64,000 nucleotides of DNA from Miltoncostaea oceani (GTDB lineage Bacteria; Actinomycetota; Thermoleophilia; Miltoncostaeales; Miltoncostaeaceae): positions 310,001-374,000 of the forward strand of contig NZ_CP064356.1 of the NCBI RefSeq assembly GCF_018141545.1. The letters run 5' to 3'. Position numbers and translations under genes: made by a program. Positions 59,261 through 64,000 of the stretch are shown here, in pieces. Under the pieces are notes generated by a model that was not told where the DNA came from, searched no databases, and saw only the letters and a list, made by a program, of their open reading frames with translations. Position 1 is the first letter of the stretch. Each line of letters opens with the position of its first letter.

Positions 59261-59286
59261 GGTTTCGGGCCGGGCGGCGGGGGTAG
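59261..59286 (+). promoter_or_regulatory. Sigma-B/F-like promoter of the manganese catalase
   Basis: GGTTT (59261-59265), 15 bases, GGGTAG (59281-59286), the best match to the GGTTT-N15-GGGTA pattern, with GAGGAG and GTG 59316 following at normal leader distance. Confidence 0.62.
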
Positions 59287-59315: not shown

Positions 59316-60383
59316 GTGATCCGCCGCATCGACCGCCTGCAGACCGAGCTGCCGCCGCCGTCCGACCCCGACCCCGACGGCGCCGCCGCCGTCCAGGAGC
59401 TGATGGGCGGTCGCTTCGGCGAGATGTCGACCCTGATGAACTACACGATGCAGTCGTTCAACTTCCGCGGCCGACAGAAGGCCCGGCCGTTCTACGACCT
59501 CGTCGCGAACATCGCGGCCGAGGAGTACGGCCACATCGAGCTGGTGGCCGCGACCATCAACACGATGCTCACCGGCGCCGGTGAGGGTGCCGCGCCCGAC
59601 GCGGCCCTCGAGGGCGTCAAGGGCGTCCGCAACGTGCAGCACTTCCTCGCCGGGGGGCAGGGCGCGCTGCTCCAGGACTCGATGGGCCGCCCGTGGACGG
59701 GCGACTACGTGTTCTCGTCCGGCGACCTCGTCGAGGACCTGACGCACAACTTCTTCCTCGAGACCGGGGCCCGCAACAACAAGCTGAAGGTCTACGAGAT
59801 GTGCACGCACCCGGCGGCGCGTGCGCTGACCGGCTACCTCCTCGTGCGCGGCGGCGTCCACCAGGTCGCCTACGCCCGCGCGATCGAGCTCCTCACCGGC
59901 GCGGACCTCATGAAGATGTTCCCGTCGCCGCGCATCCCGACGGAGCTGATCCCCGAGTGCCGGCCCCACATCGACCGCGGCGAGCACCTGAGGCTCTACC
60001 GCTTCTCGCCCGAGGACTACCTGGAGCTGACCGCGGTCTTCCGCGGCCCGCACCCCGAGACCGGCGAGGACCTCGTCGTCGTGGACGACGCCCCCGAGGG
60101 CGCCCCCGCCCACGACCTGCCGCCGCAGACGGCCGTCTTCGCGCCGGACTACGCGCCGGAGGAGATCGCGGAGATCGCGGTGCGCCTGCGCCGCGAGGCC
60201 GGTCTGTCGGACGAGCCGAGCGGCGTCGTCGCGAGCACCCCCGGCAGCCGCGGGGCGAGGAAGGCGACCGGCGGCAGGCCCGCCGCGAAGAAGGCCGCGG
60301 CGGCGAAGCCCGCCGCGAAGACGACCGCCGCGAAGAAGCCCGCGGCGCGCAAGCCCGCCGCGAAGGGCGCGAAGCGCAGCTGA
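59316..60383 (+). CDS. Manganese catalase with lysine/alanine-rich histone-like C-terminal tail
   Basis: 355 residues. The four-helix ferritin-like core has the dimanganese ligands: Glu36 in [20 protein letters not shown], Glu70 and His73 in [15 protein letters not shown], and a Glu/His pair further on ([30 protein letters not shown]). It splits hydrogen peroxide. Residues 311-355 are a tail with PAAKK-type repeats, ten Lys and five Arg in 45 residues and no acidic residue, like histone H1 or HupB tails; this is not part of the known enzyme. GTG 59316 has GAGGAG 7 bases upstream. A strong stress-type promoter precedes it. Confidence 0.92.
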
Positions 60384-60457: not shown

Positions 60458-60946
60458 ATGGCCGAGCTCACGAAGCTCGAGGACAAGCTGGGCGAGGTGC
60501 TCGGGCTGGCGAAGGCCGCCCGTGAGGCGACGGGGCGGGTGGCCCGGCTCCTCGATGACGACGAGATGGCCGGCACGCTGCGCGCCATGGGCGACGAGGC
60601 GGCGGAGACCGCCCGCCGCTGCGAGGCCGTGGCCGGCGGCCGGACCGGTCGCAAGACCGCGATCATCGAGAAGGCCCGCGAGACGACCGCCGAGGCGAAG
60701 GACATGATGGCGACCTACCTCGGGGAGGACCCGGAGGGCCTCGACGGCCTCGAGTTCCTGAGCATGGCCGAGGCGGGCGAGGTCTGCCACGTCGAGGTGC
60801 TCGGCGCGCTGGCCCGCACGGCGGGTGACGCGGAGGTGCTCGACCTGGTCGCCTGGGCGCTGCCGATCCAGGAGCGCCACCTCGCGACGGTCCGCGAGAG
60901 CGCCGTCGACCTGGCGGCCGACGAGGACCCGGAGGAGACCGCCTAG
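60458..60946 (+). CDS. Ferritin-like/four-helix protein of unknown function
   Basis: 162 residues, almost all helical. Repeated Glu/His-containing helices (MGDEAAETARRCEAVAGG, EFLSMAEAGEVCHVEVLGAL, WALPIQERHLATVRESAV) suggest a ferritin-like bundle that could hold a metal pair, but the ExxH motifs are not a confident match to a named family. GAGGAGG lies 8 bases upstream of ATG 60458. Placed directly after the manganese catalase, so an oxidative-stress role is plausible by context. Confidence 0.68.
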   Translation: MAELTKLEDKLGEVLGLAKAAREATGRVARLLDDDEMAGTLRAMGDEAAETARRCEAVAGGRTGRKTAIIEKARETTAEAKDMMATYLGEDPEGLDGLEFLSMAEAGEVCHVEVLGALARTAGDAEVLDLVAWALPIQERHLATVRESAVDLAADEDPEETA

Positions 60947-61054: not shown

Positions 61055-61420
61055 ATGGCGACGGACGACGTGGGCGTGGACCCGGCGAACGACCGGCTCG
61101 GCCCTGCCCTGGAGGGGCGGCTGGGCGCGGACGGCGACGCCGCCGTCTACGAGATCATCGGCGAGCTCGACCTGGGCGGCGCGGCCGCGCTCGCGGCGCG
61201 GCTCGAGGAGGTCGTGGACGCGACCGGCGGGGACCTGGTGCTCGACCTGTCCCGGATGCCGTTCGTCGACTCGACGGGCCTGCGGATCCTCATCGACGCG
61301 CGCCGCCACCTCGACGCGCGCGGCCGCCGCCTCGTGCTCCGCGCGATGCAGCCCGACGTCGAGCGTCTCCTGCGCCTGACGGCGATGGAGGCGTGGTTCG
61401 AGCCGGGGGGCGGCCGCTAA
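61055..61420 (+). CDS. STAS-domain anti-sigma factor antagonist (RsbV/SpoIIAA-like)
   Basis: 121 residues. The STAS fold includes YEIIGELDLGGAAAL and the phosphorylation loop MPFVDSTGLRILIDARR with Ser73 as the predicted phosphoacceptor. Unphosphorylated antagonists bind the anti-sigma kinase and free the sigma factor; a PP2C phosphatase (62932) would dephosphorylate it. The HATPase at 55813 is the nearest candidate kinase but is degenerate. The end overlaps convergent nhaA by 4 bases. Confidence 0.9.
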   Translation: MATDDVGVDPANDRLGPALEGRLGADGDAAVYEIIGELDLGGAAALAARLEEVVDATGGDLVLDLSRMPFVDSTGLRILIDARRHLDARGRRLVLRAMQPDVERLLRLTAMEAWFEPGGGR

Positions 61421-62931: not shown

Positions 62932-64000
62932 TCAGGCGGGGCGGAACCTGAGGCAGACGAGGACGGCGTCGTCGGAGTTGCCGGTCTCCCGGATCATCGC
63001 GGCGACGACGCGGTCGCACATGTCGGCGACGGGCGCGTCGCGCAGGTCCTCCGCGGCCGCGCGGAGCCGCCCGAGGCCGACGTCCATCGACTCCTCGCGC
63101 CGCTCGACGAGGCCGTCCGTGTAGAGCAGCAGCACCGCGCCGGCGGGGAGGACGGTGGAGGCGTGCCCGCGATCGCGTCCCGACCCCGGCCGGCACAGGG
63201 GCATCGAGCGACCTCCCTCCAGCCACGCGGCGGGACCGTCGGGCGGCAGCAGCAGCATGGGCGGGTGCCCCGCGTAGGCGTAGTCGAGGCGCCCCGTCGC
63301 GGGGTCGAGGGCCGCGAAGCCGACGGTGGCGAAGTCGGTCCCGTTCGGGCCGTCGGCGAACTGCTGCAGGCGGGCGAGGAGCGCGCCCGGTGACGGGGTG
63401 TGCGGCGCGAGCGCGGCGAGGGCGGTCCGCAGGCGTCCCATCGTCGCGGCGGCCTCCAGGCCGTGGCCGACGACGTCGCCCACGGCGATGCCGATGCGCC
63501 CGTCGGGCAGCGGCAGCGTCTCGTACCAGTCCCCGCCGACCTCGAGGGCGTCGCCCGCGGCGGTGTAGCGCGCCGCGACCTCGATCGCGGCGTGCTCCAG
63601 CAGGCGCTCGGGCAGCAGGGCCCGCTGCAGCGACAACGCCACCCGCCGCTCCTCGTCGTGGATCCGCGCGCTCGCCAGGAGCACCCCCGCCCGCCCCGCG
63701 AGGTCGGTGAGGAACGGCATGTCCTCCGCGCCGTAGGCGGGGCGCTCCGGGTTGGTGAGCGACAGCACGAGGCGCCCCGACCGGGGCCCTCCGACGTCGA
63801 GCGGCAGGGTCACGACCGAGTGGGCCCGCAGCGGCGTCCCGGGGCCGGGGTCCTCACCGGGGATGCGGATCGCGGCGTGGTCGGCGACCCGCGGGGCGAG
63901 CATCGCCACGAGGCGCTCCGCCCGCCCCTCCGCGCCCTCGACGGCCTCGAGGCCGCTGACGATCTCGGCGATCAGCTCGGCCCGCCGCCGCGCCCGCCGC
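62932..64000 (-). CDS. PP2C-type (SpoIIE/RsbU) phosphatase with GAF-like sensor, 5' end beyond the window
   Basis: At least 356 residues are visible; the frame stays open to the window end, so the N-terminus is missing. A GAF-like segment comes first (about the first 140 visible residues), then SLQRALLPERLLEHAAIEVA, the linker of RsbU-type enzymes, then the PP2C domain: VGGDWYETLPLPDGRIGIAV and GDVVGHGLEAAATMGRLRTA (metal Asp), LDYAYAGHPPMLLLP, LLLYTDGLVERRE and NSDDAVLVCLRF (Asp). It dephosphorylates STAS antagonists and so starts the general stress response. The STAS gene at 61055 is the obvious substrate. Confidence 0.92.
   Translation of the reverse strand, partial: RRARRRAELIAEIVSGLEAVEGAEGRAERLVAMLAPRVADHAAIRIPGEDPGPGTPLRAHSVVTLPLDVGGPRSGRLVLSLTNPERPAYGAEDMPFLTDLAGRAGVLLASARIHDEERRVALSLQRALLPERLLEHAAIEVAARYTAAGDALEVGGDWYETLPLPDGRIGIAVGDVVGHGLEAAATMGRLRTALAALAPHTPSPGALLARLQQFADGPNGTDFATVGFAALDPATGRLDYAYAGHPPMLLLPPDGPAAWLEGGRSMPLCRPGSGRDRGHASTVLPAGAVLLLYTDGLVERREESMDVGLGRLRAAAEDLRDAPVADMCDRVVAAMIRETGNSDDAVLVCLRFRPA

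What the first reader, a model, noticed from the sequence alone, without database searches (positions are those of the whole stretch)
59316..60383. Manganese catalase with a histone H1-like basic tail
The last 45 residues contain ten lysines and five arginines, no acidic residue and PAAKK-type repeats, as in H1/HupB tails. The core enzyme has its manganese ligands. A DNA-binding tail would place peroxide removal on the nucleoid, a Dps-like protective idea achieved with a catalase. The gene is under the best stress-type promoter in the window.
Basis: partly seen in the sequence, partly recalled or inferred. Interest (0 to 1): 0.6.

Follow-up and report, generated by a model that had tools for sequence, protein, structure and literature searches.

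The report
Manganese catalase with positively charged tail
A stress enzyme that destroys hydrogen peroxide carries a flexible, strongly positive tail like those DNA-binding proteins use, and since several related bacteria have tails of the same charge, it may be held next to DNA or another negatively charged target, which nobody has yet tested.

Summary
Window 59316-60383 (+) encodes a 355-residue manganese catalase of the Thermus type with all five Mn ligands. Its last 45 residues contain 10 Lys, 5 Arg and no acidic residue. That tail ranks first of 1,086 predicted genes (28% of the genome) in terminal lysines, and accidental read-through does not produce such tails there. AlphaFold leaves it disordered. 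Among 46 class Thermoleophilia orthologues a C-terminal extension is usual, but its type switches: basic in 16, acidic/amphipathic 'KVKDxLS' in 13, short or absent in 12. Charge recurs, sequence does not. The one other family orthologue has a shorter basic tail; the three other genus genomes lack the gene. A SigB/SigF-type promoter sits at a near-fixed distance upstream in 12 of 43 orthologues (0.04 expected). The next gene encodes a ferritin-like protein, recalling yciGFE-katN. Best reading: a stress-induced hexameric catalase whose six basic tails tether it to a polyanion, most likely DNA. DNA binding is inferred, not shown; polyphosphate, RNA, membrane or no target remain possible. New variant of a known kind.

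The parts
59262..59285 (+). SigB/SigF-type promoter, GTTT-N15-GGGTA, first base 54 bases before the start codon (GGTTT from 59261)
   Evidence: Pattern at -72..-48 in 12 of 43 orthologue upstream regions, 1 elsewhere in the 150 bases, shuffles mean 0.04, max 1
59316..60203 (+). Manganese catalase core, residues 1-296, ligands E36, E70, H73, E149, H182
   Evidence: PF05067 E 2.9e-69; 2cwl/2v8t; ligand columns invariant; AlphaFold pLDDT mostly 85-97 in the core
60204..60245 (+). Class-specific linker [14 protein letters not shown] (consensus LPxEPTGEVAN), residues 297-310
   Evidence: Same motif after the core in most orthologues of the class, absent in the homologues outside it
60246..60380 (+). 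Basic H1-like tail, residues 311-355, K10 R5, no acidic residue, predicted disordered
   Evidence: pLDDT block means 42-52; imperfect 15/45-bp tandem repeat
60458..60946 (+). Downstream ferritin-like gene (162 aa), about 75 bases after the catalase stop, probably co-transcribed
   Evidence: AlphaFold pLDDT 95.2, five helices; VIA-align Z 17-18 to bacterioferritins, Klebsiella 7tmv and YciE 3ogh; top Foldseek row YciF 4eru, E 2.5e-3; co-occurs with the catalase in 28 genomes, Fisher 2e-9
61055..61420 (+). STAS anti-sigma factor antagonist (stress-regulation neighbour)
   Evidence: PF01740, TIGR00377 above cut-off
62932..63909 (-). SpoIIE-type phosphatase (stress-regulation neighbour)
   Evidence: PF07228 E 4.1e-44

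Best explanation
This is a general-stress manganese catalase whose six subunits (hexamer inferred from the solved family members, own knowledge) each carry a flexible polycationic tail. The catalytic core is acidic (net -15), so the tail (net +13 with the linker, +15 over the last 45 residues) acts as a separate electrostatic anchor that holds the enzyme on a polyanion, most likely chromosomal DNA, so that peroxide is removed next to it. Shown: catalase core with all ligands, tail composition, rarity and predicted disorder, repeated presence of basic tails in orthologues, conserved stress-type promoter, ferritin-like neighbour. Inferred: oligomeric avidity, DNA as the target, protection in the cell.
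For: Tail is the extreme of the genome sample; read-through does not make such tails. Charge is kept while sequence drifts: tail net +4 to +31 in 16 orthologues against -5 to +2 in all others of the class, on cores of equal charge; basic tails occur in seven family codes. The other PAKK-type tails met in this genome are on Ku, a DNA-binding protein, and on one unknown protein with a weak match to histone H1-like HC2. Such tails bind DNA in HupB and Ku and occur in TopA of actinobacteria (PMC7398561) and bind DNA in AlgP/PhaF (PMC9239181). Loss of the last 16 residues of M. smegmatis Dps abolishes DNA binding without breaking the dodecamer (PMC13319912), and MsDps1 is driven by stress sigma factors SigH and SigF (PMC2779847), so the design has a precedent. 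Stress-type promoter conserved; SigB/SigF-family sigma gene just upstream of the catalase in G271.
Against: No binding data. Tail type is labile: 13 class orthologues have acidic/amphipathic tails and 12 short or none, so tethering is not needed by the enzyme in general. This genome's HU has no long basic tail (it ends TKKK). The target could be any polyanion. Most basic tails in relatives are only about 15-25 residues long.
Confidence: 0.5

Rival explanations
1. The tail is a polyanion anchor, but the physiological partner is polyphosphate, RNA or a storage granule rather than the chromosome.
For: AlgP, with a KPAA-repeat H1-like tail, sits on polyphosphate granules and depends on its C-terminus for granule spacing (PMC9239181). 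The sequence cannot tell polyanions apart.
Against: Nothing found in the window points to polyphosphate or storage granules as the partner; the one other clearly recognisable PAKK-tailed protein met in this genome is Ku.
Confidence: 0.2
2. The tail has no localisation role. It is a slippage-prone low-complexity extension, tolerated or mildly useful for solubility or stability, in a lineage whose catalase C-terminus evolves freely.
For: DNA under the tail is a 15/45-bp imperfect tandem repeat; tail length and sequence vary greatly and types switch.
Against: Lysine is 1.2% of the proteome and no read-through stretch looks like this. Acidic residues are nearly absent from the basic part of such tails and charge is kept across divergent sequences.
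Confidence: 0.2
3. Both tail types are membrane anchors: basic tails bind anionic lipid, and the KVKDxLS tails bind as amphipathic helices, placing the catalase at the membrane.
For: The two types replace each other at the same place after the same linker; the amphipathic tails have hydrophobic moments of 0.35-0.54.
Against: The basic tails have almost no hydrophobic residues to insert; the amphipathic tails carry no net positive charge.
Confidence: 0.1

Closest known systems
Thermus-type manganese catalase (2v8t, 2cwl)
   Same: Whole core, five Mn ligands, aligned over residues 1-294
   Different: The solved enzyme ends where the core ends: no linker, no basic tail
Mycobacterium smegmatis MsDps1
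   Same: Oligomeric stress protein of oxidative defence; its C-terminal tail binds DNA and its promoter is read by stress sigma factors
   Different: Ferroxidase nanocage, not a catalase; its tail function is experimentally shown
H1-like tails of HupB, Ku, actinobacterial TopA, AlgP/PhaF
   Same: Lys/Ala/Pro low-complexity C-terminal tail
   Different: Mounted on DNA-handling or granule proteins; no paper found reports one on a catalase
yciGFE-katN locus of enteric bacteria
   Same: Stress-sigma-controlled manganese catalase gene beside a ferritin-like gene
   Different: Here the downstream protein shares only the fold (YciE/YciF tie with bacterioferritins), has no Pfam family, and the sigma type differs

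Membership tests
Manganese catalase (PF05067) | Profile match above the gathering score | tested here: met
   233.7 bits against cut-off 27
Manganese catalase (PF05067) | Five Mn ligands Glu, Glu, His, Glu, His | tested here: met
   E36, E70, H73, E149, H182 invariant in the alignment
Manganese catalase (PF05067) | Hexameric assembly and catalase activity | not testable with these tools
   Needs purified protein
NCBIfam ManCatBAC equivalog (NF052557) | Score above the curated cut-off | tested here: not met
   150 bits against cut-off 350: it belongs to the other, Thermus-like branch
H1/HupB-like basic tail | Lys-rich, Ala/Pro-rich, no acid, disordered C-terminal stretch | tested here: met
   Composition; pLDDT 42-52
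H1/HupB-like basic tail | DNA binding by the tail | not testable with these tools
   Needs gel shift with a truncation
Dps family | Dps/ferritin profile (PF00210) | tested here: not met
   The catalase matches only Mn_catalase in Pfam; the likeness to Dps is one of proposed function only
General-stress (SigB/SigF) regulon | GTTT-type/GGGTA-type promoter conserved upstream of orthologues | tested here: met
   12 of 43 in the -72..-48 zone, shuffled mean 0.04; transcription itself not tested
YciF/YciE (DUF892) for the downstream gene | Sequence-family match | tested here: not met
   No Pfam family at E<=1 for the window protein
YciF/YciE (DUF892) for the downstream gene | Fold match standing above other ferritin-like proteins | tested here: inconclusive
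   YciE 3ogh Z 17.3 and 7tmv 17.9 tie with bacterioferritins at 17-18

The most novel reading that the evidence does not exclude
In Thermoleophilia, stress-induced manganese catalases have repeatedly acquired or switched short targeting tails: polycationic ones that put peroxide removal on the nucleoid, and KVKDxLS amphipathic ones that put it elsewhere. This would be a catalase counterpart of Dps with swappable addresses.
Probability: 0.3. Interest if true: 0.65.

Novelty: new variant of a known kind. Interest (0 to 1): 0.45.

Why it matters
Catalases are usually pictured as diffuse cytoplasmic enzymes. A catalase held on DNA would show that cells position peroxide removal at the molecule that most needs it, as Dps does by removing iron and peroxide. 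The natural set of orthologues with basic, amphipathic and no tail makes the question directly testable with matched enzymes.

Tried and rejected
Tail as accidental read-through of a lost stop: rejected. Tail as ordinary for a high-GC genome: rejected (first of 1,086; an earlier gene prediction, missed the catalase, most likely by choosing a too-early start, and was redone). Common origin with this genome's HU tail: HU ends TKKK without a PAKK tail. Other peroxide or iron proteins with such tails: the haem catalase (C1:859458-860621) and four ferritin-family proteins have none. Downstream gene as a proven YciF: not supported beyond fold. Literature on a tailed manganese catalase: no paper found in the held library, which is not proof of absence. 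Plasmid records hold related enzymes under 60% identity; the fifteen best rows match only the first 291-302 residues of the query. The other 72% of the genome was checked only for the PAKK-type codon pattern.

Full report
What is there. The window lies in a 4.5-Mb genome of about 76% GC (G000:C1:310001-374000). Contigs of equal length and position link its class to named Solirubrobacter and Gaiellasilicea records; Solirubrobacter is class Thermoleophilia, phylum Actinomycetota. At 59316-60383 (+) a 355-residue protein begins with GTG behind an AGGAG-like ribosome site. Residues 1-296 are a manganese catalase of the Thermus type, with all five metal ligands invariant among 31 homologues. Residues 297-310 are a linker seen, among the homologues compared, only in this class. 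Residues 311-355 are the tail: K10, R5, no acidic residue, rich in Ala and Pro. AlphaFold gives pLDDT mostly 85-97 in the core and 42-52 in the tail.

Is the tail more than chance? I predicted 1,086 genes over 1.25 Mb, 28% of the genome. Lysine is 1.2% of residues. The catalase has the most lysines of all in its last 45 residues and shares the highest net charge with an Arg-rich end of another predicted gene. The binomial chance of ten lysines in 45 is 1.5e-10. None of 2,701 stretches read past stop codons has six lysines without acid. The DNA is an imperfect tandem repeat of 15 and 45 bases, so it probably grew by slippage, but retention of AAG codons at 76% GC argues for selection (inference). 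A genome-wide pattern search for an A-K-K-x-A codon pattern found 16 sites against 4 for the reversed control. Only this catalase (two sites) and one uncharacterised protein with a five-fold KPAAK tail carry basic repeats there; that protein's tail has a sub-threshold match to histone-H1-like HC2. Ku, which the pattern missed, ends KKKAPAKRRKAS.

Is it conserved? The class search found matches in 64 of 399 genomes; the phylum and family searches added more. In a tree of 82 cores, the 46 class members form one fully supported clade on a long stem, and in this tree only they carry the linker and tails (a few apparent extensions elsewhere look like frame or read-through artefacts). Within the clade 16 tails are basic, 13 end in an amphipathic KVKDxLS-type segment with no net positive charge, 4 are other, 12 are short or absent, and one is unreadable. 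The basic state needs about 8 changes on the tree (7-9 in bootstraps, at least 3 forced by starred branches). Core charge is the same in all types (median net -11 to -13), while tail charge splits cleanly: +4 to +31 against -5 to +2. So what recurs is the charge, not the sequence. In the window's own family only one of 41 other genomes has the gene, and its tail is basic but short (AKKRPASRSRKAAAKP); the three other genomes of the genus lack the gene.

Regulation and neighbours. GTTT-N15-GGGTA begins 54 bases before the start. The pattern G[GT]TT-N13-16-GGG[TC]A falls at -72 to -48 in 12 of 43 orthologue upstream regions, once elsewhere in the 150 bases, and on average 0.04 times in mononucleotide shuffles. 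This is the form recognised by SigB/SigF-type sigma factors (established knowledge). In G271 a SigB/SigF/SigG-family sigma gene lies directly upstream of the catalase. The window has a STAS anti-sigma antagonist at 61055-61420 and a SpoIIE phosphatase at 62932-63909. The next gene, 60458-60946, has no Pfam family. Its confident model is a ferritin-like helical bundle tying in Z with bacterioferritins, YciE and Klebsiella 7tmv; Foldseek's first row is YciF, though at E 2.5e-3. Relatives occur in 63 of 399 class genomes, 28 of them with the catalase (Fisher 2e-9, not corrected for kinship). It directly follows the catalase in G271, lies about 1.1 kb downstream in G278, and follows a decayed catalase in G299. 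The pair recalls the RpoS-controlled yciGFE-katN locus (katN is a Mn catalase promoted by RpoS, PMC5363993), but membership beyond fold is not shown.

How it most likely works. Lysine-rich C-terminal domains are required for DNA interaction in Ku and HupB, and KPAA-repeat peptides of AlgP bind DNA. In M. smegmatis Dps, removing the last 16 residues abolishes DNA binding while leaving the dodecamer intact, and that protein is also under stress sigma factors. By analogy the six tails of a catalase hexamer would give avidity for DNA and place peroxide removal on it. I hold this at about 0.5. Polyphosphate or RNA as target (AlgP sits on polyphosphate granules), no target, or membrane binding remain open. 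No experiment here tests binding.

Verdict. A real, selected-looking and recurrent feature on a known enzyme; a new variant of a known kind, with an untested but directly testable function.

Noticed in passing
L008, L010, L027, L029-L031, L034, L039, L040, L043, L046, L048, L067 (tails listed): Orthologues without a basic tail often end in a recurrent amphipathic segment, GxVxKVKDxLS/T. A distant manganese catalase subfamily (L097, L098) ends the same way (DKxKDKLT), suggesting a targeting or docking peptide of unknown target.
   Followed up: partly
L234:5778-6707 (-), G000:C1 about 2,356,800: Uncharacterised protein whose C-terminus holds KPAAKKPAAKKPAAKKPAAKKPAAK, with a sub-threshold match to histone H1-like HC2; possibly another nucleoid or granule tether.
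   Followed up: partly
G000:C1:11500-12495 (-): Ku protein (by sequence likeness, not searched) with a lysine-rich end, KKKAPAKRRKAS.
   Followed up: no
L236:4162-4839 (-), genome G299: A decayed catalase with large internal deletions joined in frame to a remnant of the downstream ferritin-like protein.
   Followed up: no
window 60458-60946 and L200-L228: A ferritin-like family of about 160 aa with no Pfam entry and invariant E105, E108, H111, Q138, H141, in 63 of 399 class genomes; G271 has two copies.
   Followed up: partly
L058, L061, L062, L065 (family f12): Catalases with basic tails of about 100-145 residues, net +19 to +31, giving whole-protein pI above 9.
   Followed up: partly
L021:3-425 and on (uncultured Terriglobus, Acidobacteria): A partial, distant manganese catalase (about 38% identical) also ends in a lysine-rich stretch, SSSSAKKSSKKK, hinting that basic ends arose independently outside the class.
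   Followed up: no
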